The position numbers and the translations under genes were made by a program. Shown here piece by piece: positions 19,108-51,729 of a DNA stretch of 54,157 nucleotides; position 1 is the stretch's first letter, and each line of letters begins with the position of its first letter. The stretch comes from Novosphingobium sp. HII-3 (lineage in GTDB: Bacteria; Pseudomonadota; Alphaproteobacteria; Sphingomonadales; Sphingomonadaceae). Under the pieces are notes generated by a model that made no database searches, was not told the origin of the DNA, and saw nothing but the letters and a program-made list of their open reading frames with translations. The stretch covers positions 1 through 54,157 of the forward strand of contig NZ_PPSM01000016.1 of NCBI RefSeq assembly GCF_002916655.1, in the 5' to 3' direction.

Positions 19108-19123
19108 GGTATTATAGGATAAG
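19108..19123 (-). promoter_or_regulatory. CCTATA flagellar box upstream of fliF
   Basis: In the direction of fliF this reads CTTATCCTATAATACC, 46 bp before the start codon. It shares ATCCTATAAT with the flbT site and TATCCTA with the flgE site. No consistent -35 element is visible 15-19 bp upstream. Confidence 0.65.
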
Positions 19124-19184
19124 ACTAGGCAAGACTTGCCGGGTTCATGGAAATTTGTGTCGCGGCGTCGCCCTGCAAAGGCGA

Positions 19185-19910
19185 TCAAGCCTCGCGCGGC
19201 ACCCGGCCATCTGGCATGCCGCGCTGGGTGGCAGGTCGCAGCACCCCGTCGAGTTCGGCCAGCACGGCGGCGCGGCGGGCCTGCGCGTCCACATCCAGGC
19301 CGCCCGCGTTCCAGTCGATACGCGCGTCTCCCGGTGCCACCTCCTCGTCGCTGACGACGGTAATGGACAGCGCACGACCGGCACGGCCTTCGCGGGCCTC
19401 GATCAGCGCCGCGATATCCTCGCACATCTCGGGATTGGCGCGCACGACCAGCGCGGTCCCGCGCACCACCTGATCGAGCGCACGGCCCAGAGCCTCGTCA
19501 ATGGCCCTTGCCGGAGCCTCATCAATGGCATGGCCGGCCAGCATTTCCGCCGCATGAAAGGCCACGGCCCCGGCTTCACCCACCATCCGCTGCGCCGCTT
19601 CGTCAAAGCGGCACTCGACGAGATCCAAGGAGGCGTAAAGCGCGTCCGTTGCTGCAAGCAGCGCCTCGCCGCGTTCCGTCCGCGCCTGCGCGGCTCCGGC
19701 CTCAAAGCCGTCGGCGCGAGCGCGGGCAAGCTCCGCGGCATGTTCAGCCTTCATCCGCTCGACAAGCGCCTGCAGATCCTCCACCTGCTCCTGAAGCGCT
19801 TCAAAGGAAGGCTCATCCGGCAGCTGCGGCGGTGCGACCGGCGTGTCGACCTTGTGAAAGAACACCCGGTCGAAGCCGAAGGGCTGTATGGTGGCCGCAG
19901 CGTCCATCAT
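19185..19910 (-). CDS. fliH: flagellar export ATPase regulator FliH
   Basis: About 241 residues. The N-terminus has IQPFGFDRVF, typical of alphaproteobacterial FliH. A coiled-coil middle follows (about 25-85, EALQEQVEDLQALVERMKAEH), then the C-terminal V/A-ATPase E-subunit-like domain (ALDQVVRGTALVVRANPEMC). FliH holds the export ATPase FliI in check and links it to the C-ring. It starts within a few bases of the fliG stop (GTG 19913, ATG 19910 or ATG 19907 are all possible), so the two are translationally coupled. The closing residues after about 225 are variable. Confidence 0.88.
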   Translation of the reverse strand: MMDAAATIQPFGFDRVFFHKVDTPVAPPQLPDEPSFEALQEQVEDLQALVERMKAEHAAELARARADGFEAGAAQARTERGEALLAATDALYASLDLVECRFDEAAQRMVGEAGAVAFHAAEMLAGHAIDEAPARAIDEALGRALDQVVRGTALVVRANPEMCEDIAALIEAREGRAGRALSITVVSDEEVAPGDARIDWNAGGLDVDAQARRAAVLAELDGVLRPATQRGMPDGRVPREA

Positions 19911-19914
19911 CACC

Positions 19915-20943
19915 TCAGTAGATCATCGCGTCGTCGCTCTTCGGATCGGCGAGCAGGATTTCTCCCTTCTCGCCGAGATCCTTTGCGAGCGCCACGAGAT
20001 TGCCCTGCGCAGCCTCGCACTCGCGCGCGCGGACGGGCCCCATGGCAGCCATGTCGTCGCGCAGAAGCTTTGCAGCACGTTCCGTCATCGCCCCAAAGAA
20101 CAGGCGCCGCATATCTTCCGGCGCCCCCTTGAGGGCCAGCGCCAGCTCGCGCTTGTTGCAATTGCGCACAACGACCTGGATGGCGCTCGGCAGGAGGTTG
20201 CCCAGATCCTCGAACGTGAACATGAGCCCGCGGATGCGCTCGGCGGATTCCGGCGCGCGGTCGTCCAGCGCGCCCAGCATGGCTTCCTCGGTCGCGCGGT
20301 CCATGGCGTTGAACAGATCCGCCATGGATTCGTGCGGATCCCGACGTTGCGCGCGCGAAAGATTAGTCATGAACTCGGTTTTGAGTGTCTGCTCGACCTG
20401 AACGATCACGTCCTTCTGAACCGTCTCGGTCTTCAGCATCCGCAGGACGACTTCGGTGCTGAACTCACGGGGAAGTGCCGCCAGTACCCTCGCCGCATGG
20501 TCAGACTTCAGCTTCTGCAGGATCACGGCCACTGTCTGCGGGTGTTCGCTCTTGAGGTATCCGGCCAGCACGCCTTCGCTGACGTTCGAAAGCTTGTCCC
20601 ACATGGTCCGCCCGGAAGGACCACGGATGTCTTCCATGATATCCTTCACCCTGTCGGGCGAGAGCACGCCCTCCAGCAGGCGCTCGGTGGTTTCATAGGA
20701 GCCATGCAGCGTGGTGATCGAGGAGACTTCCCCGACGAACTGCCCCAGCAGGTATTCGACCACGGGCGCCGGTACCCGGCCGAGCTGCGCGATGCTCGCC
20801 GACAGTTCCTTGATCTCGTCGTCGTTGAGTTGCTGCCAGATGGGGATGCCATGCTCCTGGCCCAGTGCCAGCAGCAGCGCAGCCGCCCGCTGCGTGCCCG
20901 AGTACTTCTTCAGCTCGGGCGGCTCACCCACCGCAGTCATCAT
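19915..20943 (-). CDS. fliG: flagellar motor switch protein FliG
   Basis: 342 residues from the M at 20943. Three FliG domains are seen: N-terminal FliF-binding (GTQRAAALLLALGQEHGIPIW), middle with the EHPQTVAVILQ motif, and C-terminal torque domain ending LVALAKDLGEKGEI, with MFTFEDLGNLLPSAIQVVVR containing the charged torque helix. A longer frame to 21057 is rejected because it would run into the promoter box and adds no family sequence. It sits on FliF and receives torque from MotA. Operon fliG-fliH; divergent from the 902-residue gene across a near-palindromic box. Confidence 0.93.
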   Translation of the reverse strand: MMTAVGEPPELKKYSGTQRAAALLLALGQEHGIPIWQQLNDDEIKELSASIAQLGRVPAPVVEYLLGQFVGEVSSITTLHGSYETTERLLEGVLSPDRVKDIMEDIRGPSGRTMWDKLSNVSEGVLAGYLKSEHPQTVAVILQKLKSDHAARVLAALPREFSTEVVLRMLKTETVQKDVIVQVEQTLKTEFMTNLSRAQRRDPHESMADLFNAMDRATEEAMLGALDDRAPESAERIRGLMFTFEDLGNLLPSAIQVVVRNCNKRELALALKGAPEDMRRLFFGAMTERAAKLLRDDMAAMGPVRARECEAAQGNLVALAKDLGEKGEILLADPKSDDAMIY

Positions 20944-21009
20944 GTTCACTGTGAGTTTCCCTGAAACGTCATGGCAATTTCGAAGCGATCCCATCCGATT
21001 CCGGCGACT

Positions 21010-21029
21010 CTCTTCTATTAATAGGAGAG
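21010..21029. promoter_or_regulatory. divergent near-palindromic flagellar box (fliG / 902-aa gene)
   Basis: CTCTTCTATTAATAGGAGAG is a 20-bp inverted repeat with a single mismatched pair. Towards fliG it reads CTCCTATTAATAG, a variant of the flagellar box; towards the 902-residue gene it reads CTTCTATTAATAG. It lies 66 bp from fliG and 30 bp from the other start, so it can serve both. Confidence 0.6.
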
Positions 21030-21059
21030 ACCCCCGCGCAACCGGCTTACGAGGCACAA

Positions 21060-23768
21060 TTGACGATAAGTCTGAATAATGGGTTGATCGGGTTGTCCAT
21101 CCTGGGCGGAACGTCCTCCTACTCCTCCTATCTCAGCACGGCGGCATCGACGGAGAGCCCGGCTGTCATCGCAGCGAAGAAGGCGTTCTCCACGCCGACC
21201 GTGACACCCCCGTGGCAGGGGCTTGGGGAGATGAGCGGAGCGACCAGCGCGCAGGTGGCCGCAGTCAAGCGCTTGGCCTCGATCATCGACACCTCCGGGG
21301 ACAGCTCCCTTGACGGCTTGCCCGATGTGCAGACGGCCTTCACCGCTTACAAGGCCTTGGAGAACCTGCGGATTCTTGCCGAAGCGGGGACATCGAAAAC
21401 CCTTCAGGAGGCGGAGCGCGCATCCCTTCAGAAGGCCTTCGCCAGAGGGCTGAGCGATCTTCAGTCCTATTTAGCGTCGGCGGAGACCGATCTGCTGACG
21501 CTTGCCTTCGGGTCCGCCTCCAGCACCAGCCGGACAGTGGGCCTGCCCTCGGTCTACGCTCTTGGGGCGGTGGTCGGTGCCGGCGTCTCGGCCACGCGCG
21601 CGGCATCTCTGGAGGGCCTGAGCGGGTCGGAAATTTTTTCCGTTTCCCTCACTAAGGGCAGCCTGACGGAGGTCGTGACAGTCGATCTTTCGCAGAGCAG
21701 CCAGCCGCCGACGCTCGATTCGGTGGCGGGGGCGCTCAACGCGGCCATCGCCGCAAGGCCTCTTCTCGATGCGAACGGCAGGCCGGTTCTCGATGCCGAC
21801 GGAAACCCGACGAGCAAGTGGACATCGAATTTCACGGTCGAGAAGTCCGGCGGGAAATGGGGTCTTGTGTTCAACCCATCCGGCAGCGAGCAAGTATCTC
21901 TCGATCAGGTGGGCACGGCCGACGCCCTGATGATCGCCAGCGGTGAGACACGGCAGATCTCCGGCCAGGACAGCCCGGTCAGCGCGAACGTGTATCGTAT
22001 TGAGGACCGCGCGGGATCGCTGAGTTGGGAGCGGTTGAATACGATAAGCGCCGTAGACGCGGCCGCCACCGCGAGAGCGCAAGCGGCCGCGATCGACAGC
22101 ACGGAAGATGACGCTGCCAACCTCACGGTCAATGCCGGTACGACCACACAGGGGCTCGTCACGGATGCGCAGGGGTACAGCTACATCGTGGGCACGACCG
22201 CCGGGGACCTGGGGACGCACCTCGGGGACGGCACCGACGATCTGTTCCTCACCAAGGTGGATAGCGAAGGCAACCTCGTGTGGCAGCGCAGTCTGGGGAC
22301 CGCTGGCAGCGCCCGGGGTGCGGCCGTCACCCTCGCCCCCAATGGCGAAATCGTGGTTGCGGGAACCGCCAGCAGCGGAGACGAGATCCAGGGCGACATG
22401 CTGGTGGCTCGCTTCAACGCCAAGGGGCAGGAACTTTCGAATACAGTCATCCGGCAGGTAGGAGCCGAAACAGCCAGTGCGGTCACCGTGGGCCGTGATG
22501 GTTCCATCTTCGTGGCCGGCCGCGCGTCCTCGGGCGGGGGTGACGCGGTGATCGTCAAGCTGGACAGCGCCGGCAAGCTCATCGAGCGGCGCACGATCGA
22601 CAGCGGAGGATCAGATTCAGTGGCCGCGCTGGCCATCGATGGCGAGGGGCGCCTTCTTGCCCTTACGCACGAGCAGGGCATTGCTACGCTGCGCCGCTTC
22701 GGCTCCTCGCTGGGGGAGGATGCAGGCAGCCTTGAACTGGGTGCGGCCTCAGCGCGCGCGATAGCGGTATCGGAGACAGGGCAGATCGCGGTGGCGGGAA
22801 CGTCCAGCAGCAGCCTGCTCGGCGACCAGGTCAACGCCCCCAGTGGGGGAATGGACGCCTTCGTCACGCTCATCGACGCTGACTTCTCCAGCCGGTCCAC
22901 GACGTACATAGGAACGGCAGAGGCCGACCAGGCGGACAGCCTCACTTTTCTGAACGGCTCCCTGTATGTCGGCGGACGAACGGCCGGCACTCTGGAAGGC
23001 GAAAGGTCCGGCCGGGTGGACGGCTTTGTCGCTCGCATTGATCCGGGCAGCGGCTCGGTCCAGACCGTTTCGCAGTGGGGGCGCCTCGCCACCTCTATCG
23101 AGCCGGTGCGTCTGTCCGCCGTGTCCGGAGGCTCGACGGCGCTCGGGGCCCTTGGCCTGCACCGCGGCGTGCTCAACCAGCAGGCGACCGGCGATCTGGT
23201 CACGGAAACCTCTCTGCGGGTGGGAGACAATTTCAAGATCAGGCTCGACGGCGGGGCGGCGCGGACGGTCACCATCGAGAAAGGTGAGACCATGGCCTCT
23301 CTCGCCCAGAAGATTCGCCGGATAACCGGAACTGACGCCACGATCAGCACCCCGTTCACGGATGGTCTGTCCAGCCTCAAGATCGAGGTGAAGTCGGGCC
23401 ATACCCTTGAGCTCGTTGCCGGCGTGACAGGGACCGATGCGCTGCCGAAGCTGGGCCTCGAGCCCATCCGGCTCATCCCCCCAAAGGTTGCCGCCAGAAA
23501 CGAACCCAAGGTCACACCGGGCGGCCGTTACAACCTTGCCCTCGATGGCACATTGACCCTGCTTGACGTGAAAACCGCGGCGGCTGCGCTGGCAGCGGTC
23601 ACTTCGGCCATATCCATGACTCAGTCCGCCTATCGCTCGCTCTACTGGGACTCAGCCAAGGCCGCTCTGGTCGACGGCGTGATGTCGGCGGGCTCGGGTT
23701 CACCGTACCAGCAGGCACAACTCGCCAACTACCAGGCCGCCCTCGCCCGGCTGACCGGCACAGCGTGA
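21060..23768 (+). CDS. large flagellar-locus protein with beta-propeller repeats, FlaEY-like candidate
   Basis: 902 residues with a TTG start; no ATG fits nearby. The N-terminal part (about 1-180) is helical, Ser/Ala-rich and has no cleavable signal peptide, like secreted axial proteins. Residues about 360-680 are SBBP-type beta-propeller repeats (GYSYIVGTTAGDLGTHLGDG with LFLTKVDSEGNLVWQRSLG, repeated with variation). A later domain (about 720-800) resembles the beta-rich inserts of FlgK/FliD-type proteins (VGDNFKIRLDGGAARTVTIE). The last 60 residues are helical. It is followed directly by flgB and is divergent from fliG at a shared box. Caulobacter FlaEY is a possible relative, but I cannot confirm homology. 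Function is unknown. Confidence 0.7.
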   Translation: MTISLNNGLIGLSILGGTSSYSSYLSTAASTESPAVIAAKKAFSTPTVTPPWQGLGEMSGATSAQVAAVKRLASIIDTSGDSSLDGLPDVQTAFTAYKALENLRILAEAGTSKTLQEAERASLQKAFARGLSDLQSYLASAETDLLTLAFGSASSTSRTVGLPSVYALGAVVGAGVSATRAASLEGLSGSEIFSVSLTKGSLTEVVTVDLSQSSQPPTLDSVAGALNAAIAARPLLDANGRPVLDADGNPTSKWTSNFTVEKSGGKWGLVFNPSGSEQVSLDQVGTADALMIASGETRQISGQDSPVSANVYRIEDRAGSLSWERLNTISAVDAAATARAQAAAIDSTEDDAANLTVNAGTTTQGLVTDAQGYSYIVGTTAGDLGTHLGDGTDDLFLTKVDSEGNLVWQRSLGTAGSARGAAVTLAPNGEIVVAGTASSGDEIQGDMLVARFNAKGQELSNTVIRQVGAETASAVTVGRDGSIFVAGRASSGGGDAVIVKLDSAGKLIERRTIDSGGSDSVAALAIDGEGRLLALTHEQGIATLRRFGSSLGEDAGSLELGAASARAIAVSETGQIAVAGTSSSSLLGDQVNAPSGGMDAFVTLIDADFSSRSTTYIGTAEADQADSLTFLNGSLYVGGRTAGTLEGERSGRVDGFVARIDPGSGSVQTVSQWGRLATSIEPVRLSAVSGGSTALGALGLHRGVLNQQATGDLVTETSLRVGDNFKIRLDGGAARTVTIEKGETMASLAQKIRRITGTDATISTPFTDGLSSLKIEVKSGHTLELVAGVTGTDALPKLGLEPIRLIPPKVAARNEPKVTPGGRYNLALDGTLTLLDVKTAAAALAAVTSAISMTQSAYRSLYWDSAKAALVDGVMSAGSGSPYQQAQLANYQAALARLTGTA

Positions 23769-23782
23769 CAGGAAAGCCCCTG

Positions 23783-24208
23783 ATGTCCTCCTTGCCCGCC
23801 ATATTCGACAGCATGAGCCGCGCCATGAAATCCATGGCCGAGCACCAGCGTGTTATCGCCGAGAACGTCGCCAACAGCGAAACTCCCGGGTACAAGGCAC
23901 GGACGGTGGAGGCGCCGGATTTCGCCTCCCTCCTCGACGGACAGCTTGGAGCCGGCGCCCCCCCCCACGTGTCCCGGCCCAGAGTGGAGCTGTCGGGCGG
24001 CATGGCCGCTCTCGGTGCACGACCTCCGCAGACGGGCGGACGCGTGGTGCTGGACAGCGAGACGAGCGAAACCAAGCCCGACGGCAACAATGTGACGCTC
24101 GAGGACCAGCTTCTGGCGCTTGGCGAGGTGCAGCAGGACTACGCGGCGCTGACCAACCTCTATCGCAAACAGATGGCCCTGATGAAGACGGCGACCGGCA
24201 AGGGCTGA
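23783..24208 (+). CDS. flgB: flagellar proximal rod protein FlgB
   Basis: 141 residues. The rod N-terminal signature IFDSMSRAMKSMAEHQRVIAENVANSETPGYKA and C-terminal LEDQLLALGEVQQDYAALTNLYRKQM are clear. The ATG at 23783 follows AGGAAAG by six bases and begins the family sequence. The start lies 14 bp after the stop of the 902-residue gene, so the two are cotranscribed. This is unusual because flgB is normally beside flgC, and here flgC-fliE are about 6 kb away on the other strand. Confidence 0.93.
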   Translation: MSSLPAIFDSMSRAMKSMAEHQRVIAENVANSETPGYKARTVEAPDFASLLDGQLGAGAPPHVSRPRVELSGGMAALGARPPQTGGRVVLDSETSETKPDGNNVTLEDQLLALGEVQQDYAALTNLYRKQMALMKTATGKG

Positions 24209-24254
24209 ACGCCGGGCCAGTTCGACGGTCCCATTTCAAGCTCCGGATCGGATC

Positions 24255-24286
24255 CTTCAGGCGCCGCCTCCGTGAGGCTCCTGAAG
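24255..24286 (+). terminator. putative terminator after flgB
   Basis: CTTCAGG (24255-24261) pairs with CCTGAAG (24280-24286) around an inner GCCTC-CGT-GAGGC stem. It starts 47 bp after the flgB stop. No T-run follows, so it may rely on Rho or act as an attenuator. Confidence 0.45.
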
Positions 24287-24320
24287 TAAGTTCAAGGCTC
24301 AAGCGCAACCGGCGCGGGCT

Positions 24321-24334
24321 TTAAGGATATTTAA
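24321..24334 (+). promoter_or_regulatory. CtrA-like half-site pair upstream of the tandem-HTH gene
   Basis: TTAA-GGATAT-TTAA has the arrangement of the CtrA site (TTAA-N7-TTAA) but with six bases between halves. CtrA controls flagellar genes in alphaproteobacteria. The spacing mismatch keeps confidence low. Confidence 0.3.
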
Positions 24335-26415: not shown

Positions 26416-27516
26416 TCACTGCACCGCTATCTCGGCCTGAAGCGCGCCTGCGGTACGCAGCGCCTGCAGGATGGTGATCAGGTCGCGCGGGCTGACGCCC
26501 AGAGCGTTGAGGCCACCGACGAGCGTCTGAAGAGACGTTCCGCTCGTCAGCATCGCCAGCGCGGCGCCATTTCCGTCGTTGGCCTCTATCCGTGTCCGGG
26601 GGAGAACGGCGGTCTGACCCGCTGACAAGGGGCCGGGCTGCGATGCGACCGGCGTCTCGGTGACGCTGATCGTCAAGCCTCCCTGAGCGATCGCCACAGG
26701 GCTTACGCGGACGTCGGCGCCCATGACGACGGTCCCTGCCGCTTCGTTGATGACGATCCGCGCCGGCTGATCCACCGCGACGGGAAGGTTCTCCACGCGC
26801 GTAAGCAGATCGATGAGCGAGCCGCTTCCATAGGGCCGCAGTTCGACGGTTCCGGGATCGAGAACTTCGGCCGAGCCGGGCGCTTGCCGGTTCACGGTCA
26901 GCGCGATCTGCCGCGCAGTCGTGAAGTCCGGGTTCTTCAGCGCAAGCTTCAGCGTAGTGGCCGAACGCAGGTCATAAGGCACTTCCCGCTCGATGATGGC
27001 ACCTCCTGCGATCCGGGCCGTGGTCATCACGCCCCGGCTCAGCCTGGCGCCGGCGCCCTGGGCCTTGAAACCCGAAACCGCCACCGGCCCTTGTGCGACC
27101 GCGTAGATTTCCCCGTCGAGAGCACGCAGCGAGGACACGAGCAGGATGCCACCTTGCAGGCTGCTCGCATCGCCGAGCGCCGAAACTTGCACATCTATGG
27201 TCGAGCCTGCACGCGCGAAAGGCGGCATCGTGGCCGTCACGGTCACGGCGGCAACGTTCTGCGTCAACATCTGGCTACCCCGGATGTTGACGCCCATACG
27301 CTCGAGCATGGCCTGCAGCGTTTCCTCGGTGAACGGCACGTTGCGGGTGCGATCCCCTGTCCCCTGCAGGCCCACGACCAGACCGTAGCCGACCAGTTGG
27401 TTTGGCCGCACGTTCTCGATGTTGACGATGTCCTTGATACGCGGCTGCGGCCCGGCCATGGCCGGCACGGGGGCAAGCAGCAGGGCCGCCAGCAGGAAGA
27501 ACAGAAGCCTCGGCAT
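26416..27516 (-). CDS. flgI: flagellar P-ring protein FlgI
   Basis: 366 residues. A signal peptide (MPRLLFFLLAALLLAPVPAMA) precedes the mature start GPQPRIKDIVNIENVRPNQL. Family hallmarks GYGLVVGLQGTGDRT, MLERMGVN and the C-terminal LVGGLNALGVSPRDLITILQ are present. It forms the periplasmic P-ring around the rod. The M at 27516 is chosen because it begins the signal peptide; the longer frame to 27609 adds an Arg-rich stretch across the promoter box. The box ends only five to nine bases before this start, which suggests a leaderless or very short-leader transcript. Confidence 0.95.
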   Translation of the reverse strand: MPRLLFFLLAALLLAPVPAMAGPQPRIKDIVNIENVRPNQLVGYGLVVGLQGTGDRTRNVPFTEETLQAMLERMGVNIRGSQMLTQNVAAVTVTATMPPFARAGSTIDVQVSALGDASSLQGGILLVSSLRALDGEIYAVAQGPVAVSGFKAQGAGARLSRGVMTTARIAGGAIIEREVPYDLRSATTLKLALKNPDFTTARQIALTVNRQAPGSAEVLDPGTVELRPYGSGSLIDLLTRVENLPVAVDQPARIVINEAAGTVVMGADVRVSPVAIAQGGLTISVTETPVASQPGPLSAGQTAVLPRTRIEANDGNGAALAMLTSGTSLQTLVGGLNALGVSPRDLITILQALRTAGALQAEIAVQ

Positions 27517-27520
27517 TCCC

Positions 27521-27536
27521 GTACTTATAGGAAGGG
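27521..27536 (-). promoter_or_regulatory. CCTATA flagellar box directly before flgI
   Basis: Towards flgI it reads CCCTTCCTATAAGTAC, only four bases before the start codon. If TATAAG is a -10 element, transcription would begin at or next to the ATG. Alternatively the box is bound by a regulator that acts from an unusual position. Confidence 0.55.
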
Positions 27537-30530: not shown

Positions 30531-30545
30531 TCCTCTTATAGGCAA
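30531..30545 (-). promoter_or_regulatory. CCTATA flagellar box upstream of flgC
   Basis: Towards flgC it reads TTGCCTATAAGAGGA, 38 bp before the start codon. It is separate from the two copies that face the divergent fliN gene. Confidence 0.6.
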
Positions 30546-30565
30546 CTTTTTCCTAGTGGGACTCC

Positions 30566-30590
30566 GATCCTATAAATTTTCCTATAAGGC
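30566..30590 (+). promoter_or_regulatory. two tandem CCTATA boxes upstream of fliN paralogue
   Basis: GATCCTATAAA (30566-30576) and TTTTCCTATAAGGC (30577-30590) lie head to tail, with core starts 12 bp apart. They end 20 bp before the SpoA-domain gene. This divergent region (30494-30610) therefore carries three boxes in all. Confidence 0.6.
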
Positions 30591-34403: not shown

Positions 34404-34420
34404 CCGAATTATAGAACGTC
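34404..34420 (-). promoter_or_regulatory. flagellar box upstream of motA
   Basis: Towards motA it reads GACGTTCTATAATTCGG, 41 bp before the start. It matches the GTTCTATAAT version of the box that precedes the 84-residue gene (45675-45693). Confidence 0.55.
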
Positions 34421-34472: not shown

Positions 34473-34492
34473 CCGGCTTTCATCCTATATGG
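34473..34492 (+). promoter_or_regulatory. CCTATA flagellar box upstream of flaF
   Basis: CCGGCTTTCATCCTATATGG ends 31 bp before flaF. Its first 17 bases are identical to the box upstream of flbT, the partner regulator, although the flanks differ. Confidence 0.7.
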
Positions 34493-34927: not shown

Positions 34928-35782
34928 TCAGCAGGCGAGCATGGTCTGCCGGTACTCTGCCATAAGCGCGAACCGTGGGTCGATGCACGCCAGGTCGCCC
35001 ATGGCCTTGGCGGCACGCTTCGCCACCTGCCGCATGCGTTCGCGCGCACCCTCGTCATGGTCTCCGTCAAGAGGAGCCATGTCGAAGAGCCGGCCCTCCA
35101 CCACCTGACGGTTGTGCTCAAGACGCTGCTCAAGCTCGGTGATTTCGCTGGGGTCAAGCGAGGGGCGTCGAGGCACAACGACACCGGCGGCGCGCTCGGC
35201 GCGGGTCAACTTCCGGGGTTGCGCGCGCCGTCGGATGCGGTCGAGACCCGCGTTGCGCAGGTGTTCGACATAGCTGTCCGTCAGCGCGCTCATGGCGGCG
35301 CGGGCCAGATACTCGCTCGCCCCTGCTTCCGTGCGGCCCAGCGCATCCTCGTCGGCAATTGCCGCAAGGATGGATAGGCCCTCGCCATCATCACCGCCGG
35401 CAATCGCGTCCAGCGACACCGTGGTCGCCTCCACCTTCTTCGCCGAAGGCCGCTGGTCCGTCATCACCCGGAAGCGCAGGCTCTGCAGCTCACCGCGAAT
35501 CTGCCAGTTCACGAACGTCGTGAACTGGGCCTTTTCCGGCTCGTAAGCAAGGATGGCGCGATGGACGGCGATTGCGCAGACTTGCTCGGCATCGTCCCAG
35601 TGCCCGACAAGCCCGTACTGGCGGATGAAGTGCCGGATGCGCGGCGCGATCAGCTTGAGGATCCGCGCAAAAGCGCGGTCGATTTCCGCCCTCTGCCGCC
35701 GCGTCTGCGGAGCATCATCGGACGGCGTATTTGCCCGTACAGTCGCGACTGCGGACTCCAGGGCAGCAGTGATTTTCGACAT
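34928..35782 (-). CDS. sigma-70-like protein with region 2 but no evident region 4
   Basis: 284 residues. Residues about 40-108 read as sigma-70 region 2: IAPRIRHFIRQYG, a core-binding helix AEQVCAIAVHRAILAYEPEK, then QFTTFVNWQIRGELQSLRFR, comparable to the FETYAxxRIRGAMLDELR signature of FliA-type factors. The remaining about 175 residues contain basic patches (RIRRRAQPRKLTRAERAAG) and a helical C-terminus, but no HTH that looks like region 4. Such a protein could touch a -10 element without a -35. It is in the middle of the flagellar genes, downstream of flbT-fliI-fliJ-transglycosylase, and has two inverted CCTATA boxes before it. Alternatives: a degenerate FliA, or an anti-sigma-related regulator. 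Confidence 0.7.
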   Translation of the reverse strand: MSKITAALESAVATVRANTPSDDAPQTRRQRAEIDRAFARILKLIAPRIRHFIRQYGLVGHWDDAEQVCAIAVHRAILAYEPEKAQFTTFVNWQIRGELQSLRFRVMTDQRPSAKKVEATTVSLDAIAGGDDGEGLSILAAIADEDALGRTEAGASEYLARAAMSALTDSYVEHLRNAGLDRIRRRAQPRKLTRAERAAGVVVPRRPSLDPSEITELEQRLEHNRQVVEGRLFDMAPLDGDHDEGARERMRQVAKRAAKAMGDLACIDPRFALMAEYRQTMLAC

Positions 35783-35836
35783 GGCGAACCCCCGTGGCGC
35801 AGGCGGCTTTTTGCCACTGCTCCATGAAAGGCAAAA

Positions 35837-35872
35837 TATTCCTATAATGCGGGAACCATCAATCCTATATGG
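35837..35872 (-). promoter_or_regulatory. two inverted CCTATA boxes before the sigma-like gene
   Basis: On the plus strand TATTCCTATAATGC (35837-35850) and CAATCCTATATGG (35860-35872) appear, so both point away from the sigma-like gene they precede. Towards that gene a housekeeping-like TTGATG with TATTTT (18 bp apart) overlaps the first inverted box. The layout would suit autoregulation. No plus-strand gene starts nearby. Confidence 0.5.
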
Positions 35873-35925
35873 AAGTTATCCACTGACGGGTAGCTGGGCG
35901 CCCTTCGCGCAGGCTCTGGGCGGCC

Positions 35926-36879
35926 CTAGCCGAACCGTTCGGGCCTGATATGCTCCCCGACATAGCCAAGGAGCCATGTGCGATGCGCCGCCACGGCTCC
36001 GCCCGCCTGGGCGATTCGGCGCTCCGCCGCCGCTGCCCCGACCTGCGCACCAAGCAGCTTGCGGGCCCGGTCAGGAGCGAGACCGCCAGCCAGAAAACGC
36101 CGGGCATCTCCAAGTCCGAGATGATGGCCGAGGTAAGCCGCGCGCGCGATATCGGCCACGCCGCTCTCGATCGGCACTCCGGCCTTCCGCAGCGACTGCA
36201 CGTTCGCGGATGCGTAGTCGGCTACAGCCTCGATCGAAGCGCGGGGATCATAGCGCAGAGCGAGGAGGGCACCCCTCTTGTCGCCGCGCACCCGCCCATC
36301 CGAATCAAGCCAGCCGTTCTCCCGCGCCCGGCCGTTAAGCCAGGTGCCTGCCCGCTCAGCCTCCCCTTCCCAGGTTCCGTTGAGGAACTGGCCCAGCCCC
36401 GCCGCACTGGAGCGAGGGTTTCGCGAATAAGGCTGCCACGCGCCGCCCGGCCCCTTCGCCGCTTCCGCGTCGATGATCGCCGCGAGCGCAGGGGCGGGAA
36501 TGCCGCTGCGCGCAGCCGCGTCGTTGAGCATAGGGGTGTAGCGTGCGTTGGCCCCATCCCCATCCACATCCACAGTGCGCAGGGCAGCGGGCGCCGGGCC
36601 CGGCTTCTCGACAGCGTTTTCGCCTGTAGCACCCGAAGGCGGTGACGGGCTGGCGTCTTCCGTACTGAGGAGAGACAGAAGGCGTTCGAGCCCGATGGAA
36701 TGAGCCTCTTCGGGCATAGCCGCCGTGGAGGCCGGAACATCGGCGTTCTCTGTCGAGCCAAGCGCCGCGCGCCACAGCCGACCCGCCATCTGCGAACGCG
36801 CCTCATCATAGATCAGACGCGACTTCTGCGTCGCATCCAGGCGAGAGAGCCCCGCCGTAGCGGACGTGCGGTCAATCAC
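35926..36879 (-). CDS. flagellum-associated lytic transglycosylase-like protein
   Basis: 317 residues without an N-terminal signal peptide, which is expected if it leaves by the flagellar export route. A central SLT-like domain spans about residues 115-215: RYTPMLNDAAARSGIPAPAL, AAIIDAEAAKGPGGAWQPYS with a probable catalytic Glu, and SRNPRSSAAGLGQFLNGTWE. This would open peptidoglycan for the rod and supply the missing hydrolase half of FlgJ. It overlaps the fliJ stop by eight bases and closes the flbT-fliI-fliJ operon. The catalytic activity is inferred. Confidence 0.75.
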   Translation of the reverse strand: MIDRTSATAGLSRLDATQKSRLIYDEARSQMAGRLWRAALGSTENADVPASTAAMPEEAHSIGLERLLSLLSTEDASPSPPSGATGENAVEKPGPAPAALRTVDVDGDGANARYTPMLNDAAARSGIPAPALAAIIDAEAAKGPGGAWQPYSRNPRSSAAGLGQFLNGTWEGEAERAGTWLNGRARENGWLDSDGRVRGDKRGALLALRYDPRASIEAVADYASANVQSLRKAGVPIESGVADIARAAYLGHHLGLGDARRFLAGGLAPDRARKLLGAQVGAAAAERRIAQAGGAVAAHRTWLLGYVGEHIRPERFG

Positions 36880-39090: not shown

Positions 39091-39114
39091 CCCCTATTAT
39101 AGGATGAAAGCCGG
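39091..39114 (-). promoter_or_regulatory. CCTATA flagellar box upstream of flbT
   Basis: Towards flbT it starts CCGGCTTTCATCCTATA, 25-48 bp before the start, then continues ATAGG to make a CCTATAATAGG inverted element. It is the clearest copy of the motif in the window. Confidence 0.7.
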
Positions 39115-39172: not shown

Positions 39173-39189
39173 CTTTATCCTACAATGCC
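39173..39189 (+). promoter_or_regulatory. flagellar box upstream of flgE
   Basis: CTTTATCCTACAATGCC, 61 bp before flgE. It has one core substitution (TACAAT for TATAAT) but keeps the TTTATCCTA flank seen at fliF and flbT. Confidence 0.55.
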
Positions 39190-45655: not shown

Positions 45656-45674
45656 TCCGACGCGACTCCTCGAA

Positions 45675-45693
45675 TTTCATCCTATTATAGAAC
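45675..45693. promoter_or_regulatory. divergent flagellar box (TPR pair / exported protein)
   Basis: TTTCATCCTATTATAGAAC faces the exported-protein gene; the other strand reads GTTCTATAATAGGATG towards the 84-residue gene. One site probably serves both genes. The TTTCATCCTAT half matches the flaF/flbT boxes, the other half matches motA. Confidence 0.65.
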
Positions 45694-45729
45694 CACCCAG
45701 CCTTGTGCGGACCGCTCACCGGAGTTCCC

Positions 45730-46155: not shown

Positions 46156-46183
46156 CCGCTGTTTCCCGATCGAGGCGCGCTGC

Positions 46184-46750: not shown

Positions 46751-47253
46751 GCGACCGCGCTACCTCGCGACCCTCGGGCGGCTGTAAGGTCAAGCACGAT
46801 GCTGCTGAGATCCCGCTTCGCGGCCGGCTCTCCACCCGCGGGCGAGCTTTCACGGCGCACGGCCTCGTCGGCGCGAAGCGCGGCGTCCGCCTCTTCCCGC
46901 CATCGGGCGGGGCGGCGGCGTGCGCCGGCCTCGGCGGCCCGCGCCTTGTCTGCGGCATCCACAATGCGCTCCGCCACCGAATTGCCGACGCCGACCATCA
47001 CGGAGAGCTCGTCGCGCAATTCACGCGCGGCGAGAAGGATTTCCCCCTGCGCCGCGACATCGCTGGACAAAACGCGCTTGAGATCGGCCAGCACGATACG
47101 CGCCTGCTGAGTTGCGTTATCGAGCTTCTCGACGGCCTGATCGAGATGCCCGTCGCGCAAAGCCCGGATGCGGCGGTCCATCCGGATGGCCTGGACCATC
47201 ACGCACAGACACAGGAGAACCAGAGCGAAATTGATTGCCGTCGCAACAGTCAT
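46747..47253 (-). CDS. DUF6468-type flagellar-locus membrane protein
   Basis: 168 residues. An N-terminal transmembrane helix ([20 protein letters not shown]) precedes an amphipathic coiled coil ([40 protein letters not shown]) and an Arg/Ala-rich disordered end. Proteins of this size and layout sit next to fliM in other alphaproteobacteria (DUF6468). The start overlaps the fliM stop by four bases. Role unknown, presumably motor-linked. Confidence 0.6.
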
Positions 47254-48215
47254 TTCGAGTATCCCTTCGCGATGTCAGTTGCCATGCGGATGGCGATATT
47301 GCTTGAACGCTGGCCGATATGCGCACGCCCGAGCGGCACGCCGCCACATTGCAGATGCAGCGGATCCTCAGGGCTGTGGCTGAGGGCGATCGTATGGCCC
47401 ACCTTCAGATCGCGCACGTCCCGCAGCGACATCATCTTTTCGCCCAGGACCACATCCACGGTGACTTCGGTGTTGTAGAGCTCCGAAGCCATGTGCTGCG
47501 ACCATATGCGATCACGGCCGAGTTTCTCGCCCATGAAGCGCTGCAGGAGCTTGTCGCGCACCGGTTCGAGCGTGGCGTAGGGCAGCAGGATCGAGAACAC
47601 GCCGCCGCGCCCCTCCATCGACACGCGGTAGGTTGCGACTGCAGCCGCGTTGCTGGGTTCCGCGATCGCGGCGAACCGCGGGCTCAATTCCATCCGTTCC
47701 AGGCCCATCGCCACAGAAGCGATTTCCTCGAAGGCAGCGGCGAGCTCGTCCAGAGCCATCTGGACGACCCGAGACACCAGGCTGGACTCGATCGTGGTGA
47801 ACGTGCGGCCCTCCGGCGGCAGCGCCCGGCTTCCGCCACGGCCGCCCAGCAGCGCGTCGACGATGCCATAGATCAGCCCGGCGTCCACCGTGACCACGCC
47901 GTAGCTTTCCCAGGGCTTCACCTGGAACACCCCGAACATGGCCGGCAGCGCCACGTGGTCCATGAAATCGCCGAACCGCACGGAGGTGATCGCCTCAAGG
48001 TTCACTTCGATCGCATCCGAAGTGAGGTTGCGCATCGAGGTTGCGAACGTGCGAACCATGCGCTCACAGACCACCTCGAGCATCGGGAGACGCTCATGGC
48101 TGATGACGTTCGATTCCAGCACCGCCTTGAGCCCCCGGCGCGGCAGCGCCTCACCATCTACGGCCGCCAGCCGCACGGTCTCCGGACGAGACGGATCCTC
48201 GCGGTCCATGCTCAT
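47250..48215 (-). CDS. fliM: flagellar motor switch protein FliM
   Basis: 321 residues. The CheC-like middle and SpoA C-terminus are seen: FARSMRNLTS-type and FGDFMDHVALPAMFGVFQVK, GVVTVDAGLIYGIVDALLGG, and SIVLPYATLEPVRDKLLQRF-type, ending with VDVVLGEKMMSLRDVRDLKV. The usual N-terminal CheY-binding segment LSQxEIDALL is missing: residues 1-45 read MSMDREDPSRPETVRLAAVD and then GEALPRRGLKAVLESNVISH. The start overlaps fliL by four bases. Confidence 0.93.
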   Translation of the reverse strand: MSMDREDPSRPETVRLAAVDGEALPRRGLKAVLESNVISHERLPMLEVVCERMVRTFATSMRNLTSDAIEVNLEAITSVRFGDFMDHVALPAMFGVFQVKPWESYGVVTVDAGLIYGIVDALLGGRGGSRALPPEGRTFTTIESSLVSRVVQMALDELAAAFEEIASVAMGLERMELSPRFAAIAEPSNAAAVATYRVSMEGRGGVFSILLPYATLEPVRDKLLQRFMGEKLGRDRIWSQHMASELYNTEVTVDVVLGEKMMSLRDVRDLKVGHTIALSHSPEDPLHLQCGGVPLGRAHIGQRSSNIAIRMATDIAKGYSK

Positions 48216-48727
48216 TGCTGGATGAGATCCTGAATCAGCACGTCACGAACCATGCCCTTGCCTAGAGCTTCGGTGGAGCGCCGCATCATCTCTTCCTTTA
48301 TGCGGAATACGGCGGCCGAGCCGTTGAGGTCGTCCGGGCGCAATTCGCGCAGGAACGGCTGCAAGGCGTCGAGAACCACGGGGAGGCGTGCCTTCACCGC
48401 ATCCGTCTTGCCCGGCGCCGCGACGATCACGAACCGCAGCTTCACGAATTTCGACTGCGCCCCGCCTCCACGCAGGTTCACCATCATCGGCGGCACTTCG
48501 ATGTAGGAGGCCGACACATCGCCTTCCTCCGCCTCCGCCTCTTCGGAAGATGCCTCTGCCTGCTTCTCCTCGGCATGCTCCTCCGCCGGGCGCATGTACC
48601 AGTAGACGCCTCCGGCGCCTGCAAGCAGCCCGACCACGACGACGGCGATGGCAATCAGGCGGCCCTTGCCCGCCTTTTTCGCCACATCGGCCCCGTCCGG
48701 CGGGGTTTCGCCTGTCGTCTCGCTCAC
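48212..48727 (-). CDS. fliL: flagellar basal-body-associated protein FliL
   Basis: 171 residues from a GTG at 48727, which follows AAGG and begins the family sequence; an open frame to 49075 is rejected because it runs through flgF and the promoter. One transmembrane helix (about 26-48, RLIAIAVVVVGLLAGAGGVY), then an acidic Glu/Ala linker (about 50-75), then the FliL domain with SYIEVPPMMVNLRGGGAQSK, FVKLRFVIVAAPGKTDAVKA and a C-terminal IKEEMMRRSTEALGKGMVRD. It supports stator function. It leads the fliL-fliM-DUF6468-MotE-like operon. Confidence 0.92.
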   Translation of the reverse strand: MSETTGETPPDGADVAKKAGKGRLIAIAVVVVGLLAGAGGVYWYMRPAEEHAEEKQAEASSEEAEAEEGDVSASYIEVPPMMVNLRGGGAQSKFVKLRFVIVAAPGKTDAVKARLPVVLDALQPFLRELRPDDLNGSAAVFRIKEEMMRRSTEALGKGMVRDVLIQDLIQQ

Positions 48728-48770
48728 GCCTTGTCCCTCAAAATTCCGCACCAGAATCCATGCGCGGGAT

Positions 48771-48793
48771 TTCTTCCTATATATAGGATTGTA
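48771..48793. promoter_or_regulatory. divergent palindromic flagellar box (fliL / flgF)
   Basis: The core TCCTATATATAGGA (48775-48788) is a perfect 14-bp palindrome, so it presents the box to both fliL (48 bp away) and flgF (61 bp away). Flanks are TTCT on one side and TTGTA on the other. Confidence 0.7.
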
Positions 48794-48849
48794 GCCGGCA
48801 GGGGTGCGCCTTGCGGGTTTATGCCGAGTTTTTTTGCAAGGGCCTGAAG

Positions 48850-49593
48850 ATGGACGTCTCCTCCTTCGTGCTGCTGAGCCACGAGCAGGCCCTGCGTCGT
48901 CAGCTCGACGTGGCCGCCAACAACATGGCGAACGTCTCCACGCCAGGCTACAAGCGCGAACAGGCGCTCTTTCATGAATACGTCGAGGCGGCCCAGGAGG
49001 GACCGGTCGAGGACGCCCGCAGGACATCCTACGTCCTCGATTACGGTGCCGTTCACGATATCTCCCAGGGCGCATTCCAGGCGACCGGCAACCCTCTCGA
49101 CATCATGATCGAAGGGCCGGGTTACCTTAACGTGGAGATGGCGGACGGCTCGACCGGCTACACGCGTGTCGGCTTCGTCAAGGTGCTGGAAAGCGGCGAA
49201 CTCGCAACCTCCGGCGGCCAGCGGCTGCTGGATGAGAATGGCCGGCCGCTCGCCGTCGCCGTAGACCAGCTGGCGCTGGTGAAAATCACAAGCGACGGCA
49301 CCGTCATGGCCGGTGAGGAGCCGGTCGGCCGGCTAGCGGTGACCGGTTTCGCGGATGAGAACCTGCTGGAGGTCCGGGGCGACGGGCTTCTGACCGGCGC
49401 GGGCGGTACGGTGCTTACCGCTGCGCAGACGAAGCTGCGCACGGGCGGCGTCGAAGCGTCGAACGTGGAGCCGATCTCGGAAACCACGCACATGGTGGAG
49501 ATCCTGCGCTCCTACCAGACCAGTCAGCGCCTCTCCGCCGACCTCGCCGACATGCGCCGCCGCGCGATCGACCGTCTCAGCAAGCTGGGCTGA
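48850..49593 (+). CDS. flgF: flagellar proximal rod protein FlgF
   Basis: 247 residues. Rod motifs QALRRQLDVAANNMANVSTPGYK-type at the start and GVEASNVEPISETTHMVEIL with QRLSADLADMRRRAIDRL at the end. The ATG at 48850 is preferred to 48811 because it starts the family sequence and follows AAGGGC. First gene of flgF-flgG-flgA-flgH. Confidence 0.94.
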   Translation: MDVSSFVLLSHEQALRRQLDVAANNMANVSTPGYKREQALFHEYVEAAQEGPVEDARRTSYVLDYGAVHDISQGAFQATGNPLDIMIEGPGYLNVEMADGSTGYTRVGFVKVLESGELATSGGQRLLDENGRPLAVAVDQLALVKITSDGTVMAGEEPVGRLAVTGFADENLLEVRGDGLLTGAGGTVLTAAQTKLRTGGVEASNVEPISETTHMVEILRSYQTSQRLSADLADMRRRAIDRLSKLG

Positions 49594-49618
49594 GCCCTCT
49601 TACGTCAAGGAACCCTGC

Positions 49619-50404
49619 ATGCGTTCTCTTTCCATCGCTTCCACCGGCATGCTGGCCCAGCAGACCAATGTCGATGTCACCTCCAACAACATTGCCAACA
49701 TGAACACAACCGGGTTCAAGCGGCAGCGTGCGGAGTTTCAGGACCTCCTGTACCAGCAGGTATCCCGCCCCGGCGCGGCCACCAGTGCTGACGGCACGAA
49801 AGTGCCCTCGGGCATCCAGATCGGTGCAGGCGTGAAAACCGGCGGCGTCTACCGCATCACCGAACAGGGCGCCCTCACCAGCACCGGCAATCCCTATGAC
49901 CTCGCGATCGACGGCCCCGGCTACTTCCAGGTAATGCTGCCGAGCGGTGATCTCGGCTACACCCGCGCCGGATCGTTCCAGCTGTCGGACCAGGGCGAAC
50001 TCGTCACGGCCGACGGCTACCGCGTGCAGCCCGACATCACCGTGCCGCAGGGAGCGCTCAGCGTTTCAGTTTCAAAGACGGGCGAAGTGCAGGTGAAGCT
50101 GGCGGGCCAGGCCGAACTGCAGACGGTGGGCCAACTCGAACTGGCGACCTTCATCAACGAGGCGGGACTCGAGGCGATCGGCGATAGTCTGTTCATCGAA
50201 ACCGGCGCATCGGGCCAGCCAATGGTCTCCACCCCCGGTCAGCCCGCATACGGGACGCTGAGTCAGGGCTTCATCGAAGCCTCCAACGTCAATCCGGTCT
50301 CGGAAATCACCTCGCTCATCACCGCGCAGCGCGCTTACGAAATGAACAGCCGCGTGCTGAAGACGGCAGACGAAATGCTGCAGACTTCAACCCAGACGGT
50401 CTGA
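49619..50404 (+). CDS. flgG: flagellar distal rod protein FlgG
   Basis: 261 residues, the family length. Begins MRSLSIASTGMLAQQTNVDV with SNNIANMNTTGFKRQRAEFQ, and ends with FIEASNVNPVSEITSLITAQ and EMNSRVLKTADEMLQT. It builds the distal rod. It lies 25 bp after flgF. Confidence 0.97.
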   Translation: MRSLSIASTGMLAQQTNVDVTSNNIANMNTTGFKRQRAEFQDLLYQQVSRPGAATSADGTKVPSGIQIGAGVKTGGVYRITEQGALTSTGNPYDLAIDGPGYFQVMLPSGDLGYTRAGSFQLSDQGELVTADGYRVQPDITVPQGALSVSVSKTGEVQVKLAGQAELQTVGQLELATFINEAGLEAIGDSLFIETGASGQPMVSTPGQPAYGTLSQGFIEASNVNPVSEITSLITAQRAYEMNSRVLKTADEMLQTSTQTV

Positions 50405-50417
50405 GGCGACCGAAAGG

Positions 50418-50849
50418 ATGCTGACCGCCGCCCTTCTCATGTTGACGGCAGCCGCGCCGCAGCCCGCGAACGCGCCGGTGCCGGTTCTCGCGCGCGCAGT
50501 GGAGCGCGGCGACGTGCTGTCCAGCGCCGACTTCGAGACGGCGCGTGTGGCACCCGCCGTCGCGCGGGGCGCTCTTTCTCCCTCGGAAGCAGCGGGGCAG
50601 GAAACGACCCGTCGCCTCTCGGCCGGCAGCCCCGTTCGCGCCAACGACGTCGCCCCGCCGCGAATGGTACGCCGGGGAGAGACGGTGACGATCGCCCTCA
50701 TTTCCGGAGCCCTGCGCATCACCTCGCCGGGCCGGGCCCTGGCCGATGCGGGTCGGGGCGATCCGGTGCGAGTGTTGAACCTTGCCACGAACCGGACACT
50801 CGAAGGCGTCGCCACATCGAGCGGCGAAGTGCAAATAGCTGCACCTTGA
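50418..50849 (+). CDS. flgA: P-ring assembly chaperone FlgA
   Basis: 143 residues. A short signal peptide (about 1-19) is followed by the SAF-like pattern VPVLARAVERGDVLSSADFE and the closing LRITSPGRALADAGRGDPVR VLNLATNRTLEGVA-type FlgA motif. It is a shorter version of the family and keeps the C-terminal chaperone domain. It helps FlgI assemble in the periplasm. It starts 13 bp after flgG. Confidence 0.9.
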   Translation: MLTAALLMLTAAAPQPANAPVPVLARAVERGDVLSSADFETARVAPAVARGALSPSEAAGQETTRRLSAGSPVRANDVAPPRMVRRGETVTIALISGALRITSPGRALADAGRGDPVRVLNLATNRTLEGVATSSGEVQIAAP

Positions 50850-50885
50850 CCACCGCCACCGCGCCTGCCGCGTAGGATATTCAGC

Positions 50886-51662
50886 ATGAACAACCGTTTC
50901 CTCATCGTTGCCGCGGCTCTTGCCTGCTCCTCGGTCCTTACCGGCTGCGGCGCTGTCGGCCGACTTCAGAACGTCGGCAAAGCGCCCCGGATGAGCGACC
51001 CTGGCGCCCCTGTCGCGCCCCGTGTGGAGCCCTCGCTCGGCAACCATGCAAGGGCCGAGCACGGCCCCGACGGAAGCGATCCGCAGATCGCCGAGGGTTC
51101 GCGCGGGGCCTCCCTGTTCCGAACAGGAGGCGGCGCCTTCTTCCGTGACCAGCGTGCCTCCCGCGTGGGTGACATCGTCACGATCCGCATCAACATCGCC
51201 GACAGCGCCCGCGTGGATAACGCCACGACCCGCACCCGCACCGGCAGCGAGAACAGCGGTATCGCCGCCCTGCTCGGCCTCGAAAGCCAGATCGGGAAGA
51301 TCCTGCCGGGCGATCCGGACCCGGGCAATCTCACCAGCACAAGCTCGAAGTCGAGCTCGGTCGGCGCCGGGAACACCGCACGCTCGGAACAGATCAACAT
51401 GACAATCGCGGCCACCGTCGTCGGCGTGCTGCCCAACGGCAACCTGGCCATTCGCGGCAAGCAGGAAGTTCGCGTCAACTTCGAGCTGCGCGAACTGGTC
51501 GTCTCCGGCGTGATCCGGCCCGAGGATATCGCACGCGACAACTCGATCCGGCACAGCCAGATCGCGGAAGCGCGGATCAGCTATGGCGGGCGTGGGCAGC
51601 TCACCGATGCGCAGCAGGCCCGCTGGGGTCAGCAGATCTACGACGCGCTGTTTCCGTTCTGA
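50886..51662 (+). CDS. flgH: flagellar L-ring lipoprotein FlgH
   Basis: 258 residues. The lipobox LTGC (Cys at about residue 21) follows a signal peptide. Family motifs GASLFRTGGGAFFRDQRASR, VGDIVTIRINIADSARVDNA, and VNFELRELVVSGVIRPEDIA are present. It makes the outer-membrane L-ring. It is the last gene of flgF-flgG-flgA-flgH. Confidence 0.96.
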   Translation: MNNRFLIVAAALACSSVLTGCGAVGRLQNVGKAPRMSDPGAPVAPRVEPSLGNHARAEHGPDGSDPQIAEGSRGASLFRTGGGAFFRDQRASRVGDIVTIRINIADSARVDNATTRTRTGSENSGIAALLGLESQIGKILPGDPDPGNLTSTSSKSSSVGAGNTARSEQINMTIAATVVGVLPNGNLAIRGKQEVRVNFELRELVVSGVIRPEDIARDNSIRHSQIAEARISYGGRGQLTDAQQARWGQQIYDALFPF

Positions 51663-51712
51663 CGTCATGCCGGCTGCGTAGTTTTTCCACAGGCTGCGAC
51701 CGAGGGCGGCGC

Positions 51713-51729
51713 CTGCCTTCTAGAATGAT
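51713..51729 (+). promoter_or_regulatory. degenerate flagellar box upstream of flagellin
   Basis: GCCTTCTAGAATGATCC contains TTCTAGAATG, one base different from the TTCTATAAT version and close to the TTCCTATAATG at the sigma-like gene. It lies about 95 bp before the flagellin start, leaving a long 5' leader. Confidence 0.4.

What the first reader, a model, noticed from the sequence alone, without database searches (positions are those of the whole stretch)
19108..51729. One AT-rich box, ATCCTATAat, in front of almost every flagellar operon
Reading intergenic regions on both strands, I find the same short element before fliF, fliG, the 902-aa gene, flgI, flgC, the fliN paralogue (two copies), motA, flaF, the sigma-like gene (two inverted), flbT, flgE, the TPR pair and its divergent partner, fliL, flgF and, in a weaker form, flagellin. 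The best common form is (T/A)TCCTATAAT or its CCTATA core, usually 10-80 bp before the start codon. In otherwise GC-rich DNA this is far from background. No shared -35 element is visible 15-19 bp upstream. The box does not match classical sigma-28 or sigma-54 promoters, so it may define an unfamiliar flagellar promoter class.
Basis: seen in the sequence. Interest (0 to 1): 0.95.

Follow-up and report, generated by a model that had tools for sequence, protein, structure and literature searches.

The report
Flagellar promoters with private sigma factor
In a Novosphingobium-type bacterium nearly every operon of one flagellar gene cluster carries the same short sequence, predicted to be a promoter, and in related bacteria it is concentrated at flagellar clusters that also hold an odd sigma-factor gene, which likely directs RNA polymerase to all of them; a 2025 paper says that no flagellum-specific sigma factor is known in this class of bacteria.

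Summary
A box (T/A)TCCTATAAT lies before almost every flagellar operon: the window has 11 box-plus-A/T-tract composites, 10 at flagellar leaders, against 0.21 expected. All five TCCTATAA(T/G) matches in the 4.1-Mb genome lie in this 54-kb contig.

It looks like a promoter -10 element, not a lone box.

The island encodes a divergent sigma-70 protein (34928-35782, minus): conserved region 2, eroded region 4. All 15 FlbT-positive genomes of 149 in the genus have a close homologue. All 21 sigma-plus-island loci examined carry composites (3-13). In seven genomes with two flagellar systems the second has none in six and one in the seventh.

Best reading: this protein is the cluster's dedicated sigma factor, with an RpoH-like -10 (CCTATA). 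Sigma-28, sigma-54, CtrA and full RpoH promoters are not supported. That the protein reads the box is inferred, not shown.

The parts
34928..35782 (-). Divergent sigma-70 family protein, 284 aa, predicted reader of the box
   Evidence: Sigma70_r2 E 0.0024, 18.1 bits, below cut-off 24; 60 of 62 homologues match region 2, 33 of 62 region 4 at E<=0.1; model residues 1-110, mostly pLDDT 88-97, match sigma region 2 domains
19111..19119 (-). Box TCCTATAAT, fliF operon (21.5 bits)
   Evidence: 10 of 10 islands
19151..19156 (-). A/T tract AAATTT of the fliF promoter
   Evidence: tract score 9.4 bits
19128..19140 (.). Inverted repeat GGCAAGACTTGCC in the fliF promoter spacer, possible FlbD-type site
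21018..21026 (-). Weak box TCCTATTAA, fliG-fliH (7.9 bits)
   Evidence: box over 8 bits in 10 of 11 islands, not in this one
21013..21021 (+). Weak divergent box TTCTATTAA, 902-aa gene
   Evidence: by eye; scored in only 2 of 11 islands
27524..27532 (-). Box TCCTATAAG, flgI; the ATG at 27516 falls on the predicted start site (leaderless)
   Evidence: 11 of 11 islands
30535..30543 (-). Box GCCTATAAG, flgC-fliE-fliQ-fliR-flhB
   Evidence: 15 of 18 islands
30568..30576 (+). Upstream copy TCCTATAAA before the fliN paralogue, no A/T tract in register
30580..30588 (+). Box TCCTATAAG, fliN paralogue-fliO-fliP
   Evidence: 15 of 15 islands
30539..30555 (.). Inverted repeat TAGGCAACTTTTTCCTA; it contains the A/T tract of the fliN-paralogue promoter
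34408..34416 (-). Box TTCTATAAT, motA-motB
   Evidence: 17 of 17 islands
34483..34491 (+). Box TCCTATATG, flaF
   Evidence: 16 of 17 islands, 9 with tract
35840..35848 (+). Inverted box upstream of the sigma gene
35863..35871 (+). Second inverted box upstream of the sigma gene, 23 bp from the first
   Evidence: at least one inverted TATAGGA within 130 bp in 16 of 21 islands, two or more in 12 of 21
39096..39104 (-). Box TCCTATAAT, flbT-fliI and the two genes after it
   Evidence: 21 of 21 islands
39178..39186 (+). Box TCCTACAAT, flgE-flgK-flgL
   Evidence: 20 of 21 islands
45680..45688 (+). Box TCCTATTAT, 150-aa gene (no A/T tract)
   Evidence: 9 of 14 islands
45684..45692 (-). Overlapping reverse box TTCTATAAT, 610-aa TPR gene, 195 bp from its annotated start
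   Evidence: 8 of 20 islands
48775..48783 (+). Box TCCTATATA, flgF-flgG-flgA-flgH; one arm of the palindrome TCCTATATATAGGA
   Evidence: 11 of 20 islands, 8 with tract
48780..48788 (-). Box TCCTATATA, fliL-fliM operon; other arm
   Evidence: 18 of 20 islands
51718..51726 (+). Weak box TTCTAGAAT, flagellin, with TTTTT and GACCG upstream
   Evidence: by eye; 12 of 17 islands
16662..17123 (-). 153-aa protein that matches only the C-terminal Fis-type DNA-binding part of FlbD
   Evidence: NF050807 positions 389-450 of 454, 90 bits (cut-off 750); HTH_8

Best explanation
The box is predicted to be a promoter -10 element placed before nearly all operons of this flagellar cluster, and it is likely read by RNA polymerase carrying the cluster's own divergent sigma-70 protein (34928-35782). 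Shown by sequence: the box, the confinement of its strict form to this contig in its genome, the A/T tract at fixed distance, the purine at the expected start, the weak ACCG-like element at the -35 position, and the co-occurrence with the sigma gene. Inferred: the protein's well-conserved region 2 would melt and read TCCTATAAT (TATAAT at -12 to -7, CC at -14/-13); its eroded region 4 would contact the -35 position only weakly; the A/T tract at about -53 to -46 would compensate by binding the alpha-subunit C-terminal domains (an UP-like element). A FlbD-derived protein with only the DNA-binding end may tune some operons (fliF, fliL, fliN paralogue/flgC) through GGCAA..TTGCC-type repeats. The inverted boxes at the sigma gene may serve feedback on its own expression.
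Confidence: 0.7

Rival explanations
1. The box is read by the ordinary heat-shock sigma factor RpoH, which the genome also seems to encode; the 284-aa protein has another role.
For: CCTATA is the -10 of RpoH1 promoters CTTGAA-N15-16-CCTATAT (PMC4843759 passage); an RpoH-like protein by eye (L249); the ACCG-like element sits at the matching distance.
Against: No CTTGA[AC]-N14-17-CC[TC]AT in the window; second flagellar systems of the same genomes have 0-1 composites; TCCTATAAT averages only 1.3 in genomes that lack the 284-aa homologue, below its reversed control.
Confidence: 0.1
2. The box is a -10 for the housekeeping sigma-70, and an activator bound at the A/T tract replaces the -35 element.
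For: TATAAT is the classical -10; a tract near -50 is a usual activator position; at fliN paralogue/flgC and, in several relatives, flbT/flgE it lies inside an inverted repeat.
Against: The CC before TATA belongs to the top leader words found without a preset motif (TCCTATA, CCTATAA), and the strict TCCTATAAT/G is confined to this contig; N. aromaticivorans sigma-70 promoters mostly lack T at -7; motA, flgI and fliC tracts show no such repeat by eye; the sigma gene tracks the box.
Confidence: 0.13
3. The box is an operator for a DNA-binding regulator, not a -10 element.
For: Palindromic forms (TCCTATATATAGGA at flgF/fliL, TCCTATTATAGAA at the 150/610-aa genes) and paired inverted copies at the sigma gene.
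Against: Forward orientation at the other leaders, fixed A/T tract and start-site purine; the flgI ATG lies at +16 in 10 of 11 islands; palindromes occur at divergent pairs, where two overlapping -10 elements suffice.
Confidence: 0.06

Closest known systems
Alphaproteobacterial RpoH promoters (S. meliloti RpoH1, CTTGAA-N15-16-CCTATAT; PMC4843759, passages seen)
   Same: CCTATA -10 with CC upstream; the ACCG-like element keeps the same spacing to CC
   Different: No CTTGAA; A/T tract near -50; flagellar targets
FliA (sigma-28) flagellar regulon of gammaproteobacteria
   Same: Likely one alternative sigma for flagellar operons
   Different: Protein fails the FliA model (17 bits against 189.6); no sigma-28 sites; the box precedes early as well as late operons; an FlgM was not sought
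Azospirillum RpoE6/Asf6 and RpoE10 (PMC12826043; abstract and passages seen)
   Same: Alternative sigma factors tied to alphaproteobacterial flagella
   Different: ECF types; RpoE6 controls a minor flagellin and metabolism, RpoE10 lateral flagella; here basal body, hook, motor and filament operons carry one box
Caulobacter sigma-54/FlbD and CtrA hierarchy; Rhodobacter fla2 CtrA promoters (PMC3930126, PMC6180460; passages seen)
   Same: A FlbD-like DNA-binding end and GGCAA..TTGCC repeats; alphaproteobacterial flagellar control
   Different: The FlbD-like protein shows no receiver or AAA+ part; no TTAA-N7-TTAA; no strict sigma-54 match at these promoters
Phage T4 gp55 and Bacillus SigO/RsoA (recalled, no call)
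   Same: Sigma proteins with region 2 function and region 4 missing or separate
   Different: Here region 4 is eroded in sequence, with its last helix still conserved

Membership tests
Sigma-70 family factor | Region 2 (core binding, -10 reading) | tested here: met
Sigma-70 family factor | Region 4 helix-turn-helix | tested here: not met
   Not detected in the window copy (table A); one long helix 244-267 in the model. But 33 of 62 homologues match at E<=0.1 and the family profile matches RpoS region 4 at E 0.0003
FliA/WhiG sigma-28 | Family score over cut-off | tested here: not met
   17.0 bits, cut-off 189.6
FliA/WhiG sigma-28 | TAAA-N15-GCCGATAA promoters | tested here: not met
   0 matches in the window (pattern recalled)
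RpoH-type promoter | CCTATA -10 | tested here: met
   with consensus
RpoH-type promoter | CTTGAA -35 | tested here: not met
   0 matches of CTTGA[AC]-N14-17-CC[TC]AT in the window
CtrA-activated promoter | TTAA-N7-TTAA | tested here: not met
   0 in the window, 0 TTAACCAT (patterns recalled); TTAACC occurs before the sigma gene in some relatives (by eye)
Sigma-54 promoter | -24/-12 TGGC-N7-8-TTGC at flagellar leaders | tested here: not met
   6 strict matches in the window, none at the listed promoters; of 25 looser ones only 12 were shown (pattern recalled)
FlbD | Receiver and AAA+ domains plus Fis-type end | tested here: not met
   Only profile positions 389-450 of 454 match in a 153-aa protein; Pfam finds HTH_8 and a weak HTH_30
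UP element | Binding by RNA polymerase alpha C-terminal domain | not testable with these tools
   A/T tract at about -53 to -46 from the predicted start

The most novel reading that the evidence does not exclude
Sphingomonads have a cluster-wide flagellar sigma factor that has let its -35-reading domain decay: it reads an RpoH-like CC-TATAAT -10 and relies on an A/T tract at -50 in place of a -35 box, and it has replaced the CtrA/sigma-54/FlbD cascade, keeping only FlbD's DNA-binding end as a helper.
Probability: 0.35. Interest if true: 0.87.

Novelty: new variant of a known kind. Interest (0 to 1): 0.76.

Why it matters
A December 2025 paper states that no flagellum-specific sigma factor is known in Alphaproteobacteria (PMC12826043, abstract). 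If this reading is right, one gene deletion and one 5'-end map would reveal such a factor acting on most of a flagellar cluster, with a promoter that lets one ask how a sigma factor with an eroded region 4 is positioned. It would also show a natural replacement of a flagellar control cascade, and some genomes carry two flagellar systems as an internal control.

Tried and rejected
Tried: sigma-28, sigma-54, CtrA, RpoH and EcfG patterns, no support. A 'no region 4, no -35' reading was weakened by the ACCG-like element and by the conserved last helix (E248, R251, Q252, K255, A257 invariant in 62 homologues). Foldseek gave no match at E<=0.001 for the whole model; the second look gave domain-level matches. 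Profile search against solved structures matched RpoS region 4 weakly (E 0.0003). The divergent sigma homologues were first thought flagellar because a weak FlbT-like gene is adjacent in G054; the neighbours scanned (G054, G060) are pump, DUF445 and acetyltransferase genes. Chemoreceptor search of the own genome found none. Papers: searches gave listings, two of them cut (20 of 258, 15 of 107); none of the titles or abstract starts listed describes this sigma or box. Open-access papers only.

Weak points in counts: the matrix was trained on 102 sites from 20 islands, chosen for CC and for the tract, so its column frequencies there are partly built in and only this window is held out. Not all loci were fetched: 21 islands, leaving out G233, G245, G274, G320, G006, G043 and G039 (the last has a 55% homologue but no FlbT match). 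Of the 10 sigma-negative FlbT-positive genomes 7 were fetched, and only G052 showed a real flagellar cluster (20 genes; 0 composites); the others showed 0-3 flagellar genes in the stretch, and G040 has 1 composite. Divergent-sigma loci: 3 of 10 have 1 composite. For G306 and G223 half of the cluster lay outside the stretch. The fliL query was out of frame; one search repeats it correctly (18 of 20 with box, 17 with tract). The -35 count used 149 sites, after dropping five leaders with few or misplaced boxes, and counts ACGG with ACCG and TCCG. In one search the place count covers 13 of the 15 sigma-positive genomes, because the listing was cut.
Full report
WHAT WAS CHECKED. The window is contig C16 of a 4.11-Mb genome; its FliG is closest to Novosphingobium among the loci returned (86-92% in the top five). 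From about 12.2 to 52.7 kb it holds a flagellar cluster of the FlbT/FlaF type. CCTATA is six times over-represented (16 against 2.53). The strict box TCCTATAAT/G occurs five times in the genome, always in this contig. The 12 TCCTACAAG/T matches elsewhere lie in long open frames without an A/T tract. Of the window's 11 composites, 10 are at flagellar leaders and one (7706) precedes a non-flagellar gene.

COMPARATIVE TEST. I fetched 20 more islands that hold a homologue of the 284-aa protein, located the flagellar genes by tblastn and looked from 260 bp upstream to 115 bp inside each annotated start. Box over 8 bits / islands with the gene: fliF 10/10, fliG 10/11, flgI 11/11, flgC 15/18, fliN paralogue 15/15, motA 17/17, flaF 16/17, flbT 21/21, flgE 20/21, fliC 12/17, flgF 11/20, 150-aa gene 9/14, 610-aa gene 8/20, 902-aa gene 2/11; fliL 18/20. 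Other genes: fliM 0/20, flhA 0/10, flgB 0/10, p165 0/11, flgD 0/14, flhB 1/15, HTH_3 gene 2/10, sigma gene 5/21.

ANATOMY. Counting from the first T of TCCTATAAT as 0: an A/T tract AAAAWTTT at -38 to -31. In 141 sites of 11 islands not chosen for it, 5-base A/T runs peak at -36 (45 sites) and again near -47 (19 sites), about one helical turn further. ACCG, TCCG or ACGG starts at -20 or -19 in 42 of 149 sites, against 0-6 at other offsets. T at +8 is 59%. Purine at +15 is 82% of 161 sites, those with box and tract; it is the highest of the positions examined, though +9 to +13 is also purine-rich. If TATAAT is -12 to -7, +15 is exactly the start site, the tract lies at -53 to -46, and the ACCG-like element within -35 to -31. 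In flgI the ATG stands at +16 in 10 of 11 islands, so the mRNA would be leaderless; this moves the flgI start in the window to 27516, which gives a protein beginning MPRLLFFLLAALLLAPVPAMAG, a signal-peptide-like start (sequence).

SPECIFICITY. Strict box with tract: at least one in 20 of 21 islands (none in G099), none in 17 other loci. Composites by matrix (box at least 12 bits plus tract) per locus: islands 3-13 in 21 of 21; second flagellar systems of seven genomes 0 in six and 1 in G168; three other flagellated genomes without the sigma (G111, G172, G001) 0; FlbT-positive sigma-negative loci 0 in six, 1 in G040; loci of divergent sigma homologues 0 in seven, 1 in three of ten. Strict boxes near fliG: the 23 loci L003-L025 (Sphingomonas, Novosphingobium, Sphingobium and one unnamed MAG) hold 1-6 (expected 0.1-0.4); the other 57, mostly Bradyrhizobium, hold 0-3 (expected up to 1.5), at most 1 with a tract. 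Across 149 genomes of the genus, TCCTATAAT averages 5.9 in 15 with the sigma and FlbT, 1.3 in 130 without; four with weak homologues were set aside (2, 1, 8, 1). Of 72 listed matches in 13 sigma-positive genomes, 42 lie within 45 kb of the sigma gene.

THE SIGMA-LIKE PROTEIN. 773 homologues were found, 120 listed. Residues 84-117 (KAQFTTFVNWQIRGELQSLRFRVMTDQRPSAKKV) are almost invariant in 62 homologues and fold as part of a region 2 domain. Region 4 is recognisable in Sphingomonas homologues of about 350 aa (TLDDLSLETGVTKERVRQI), less so in others, and in the window and two nearest islands its first helix is eroded and two residues are missing. The genome has nine Sigma70_r2 matches (by eye an RpoD, an RpoH-like protein, smaller ones, and this one) and an RpoN.

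CO-OCCURRENCE. Genus sample of 149: FlbT in 15, all with a close sigma homologue (59-100% identity); four further genomes have weaker homologues (42-53%) without FlbT. Family sample of 199: sigma in 32, FlbT in 26, overlap 16. FlbT without sigma: G007, G022, G040, G052, G056, G085, G121, G150, G152, G180. FlgI in 133, so most flagellated relatives lack FlbT. The link is strict in the genus and loose at family level.

OTHER CONTROL ELEMENTS. Inverted repeats of the GGCAA..TTGCC type lie 15-20 bp upstream of a box 21 times in the 21 islands, at fliF and fliL where read, and TAGGCA..TGCCTA forms the A/T tract at fliN paralogue/flgC and, in several relatives, flbT/flgE. The 153-aa FlbD-like protein keeps only the DNA-binding end. 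In Caulobacter FlbD binds ftr sites and represses fliF (PMC3930126, passage); I did not see an ftr consensus in print, so the match of repeat and protein is inferred. Upstream of the sigma gene, inverted boxes recur in 16 of 21 islands; their role is unexplained.

VERDICT. The finding is real and better than first described: a conserved promoter-like class with a defined architecture, tied to one flagellar system and one sigma gene. That the 284-aa protein reads it is the most economical explanation and is untested.

Noticed in passing
L226 13150-19673 (G054); loci of G060, G119, G132: Divergent homologues of the sigma lie in a neighbourhood with a large (about 1150 aa) pump gene: AcrB family by Pfam in G054 and G060, with HlyD-like and DUF445 genes in G054. 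In G054 a weak FlbT-like gene (27.7 bits) is adjacent: a sigma/FlbT-like pair outside flagellar clusters.
   Followed up: partly
35783-35925: Inverted boxes before the sigma gene, mostly paired 22-23 bp apart in Novosphingobium islands, without an A/T tract in register.
   Followed up: partly
7706-7714: A box GCCTATAAA with a tract score of 5.2 bits 90 bp before the gene at 7797 (NhaA-like by eye), outside the flagellar cluster.
   Followed up: no
whole genome G000: No MCP signalling domain was found, so this flagellum may lack classical chemoreceptors.
   Followed up: no
21060-23768: 902-aa protein in the flagellar cluster with a weak beta-propeller (DUF5122) match and no flagellar family; 48-71% identical in the 8 relatives whose stretch covers it.
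   Followed up: no
12911-14443 and 35926-36879: Two candidate genes in FliK-like places: one with the Flg_hook domain, the other with no family and a sequence resembling a transglycosylase by eye.
   Followed up: no
27516 (-), 34524 (+), 34362 (-): Start codons of flgI, flaF and motA are probably about 30 codons downstream of the longest frames, after their boxes.
   Followed up: partly
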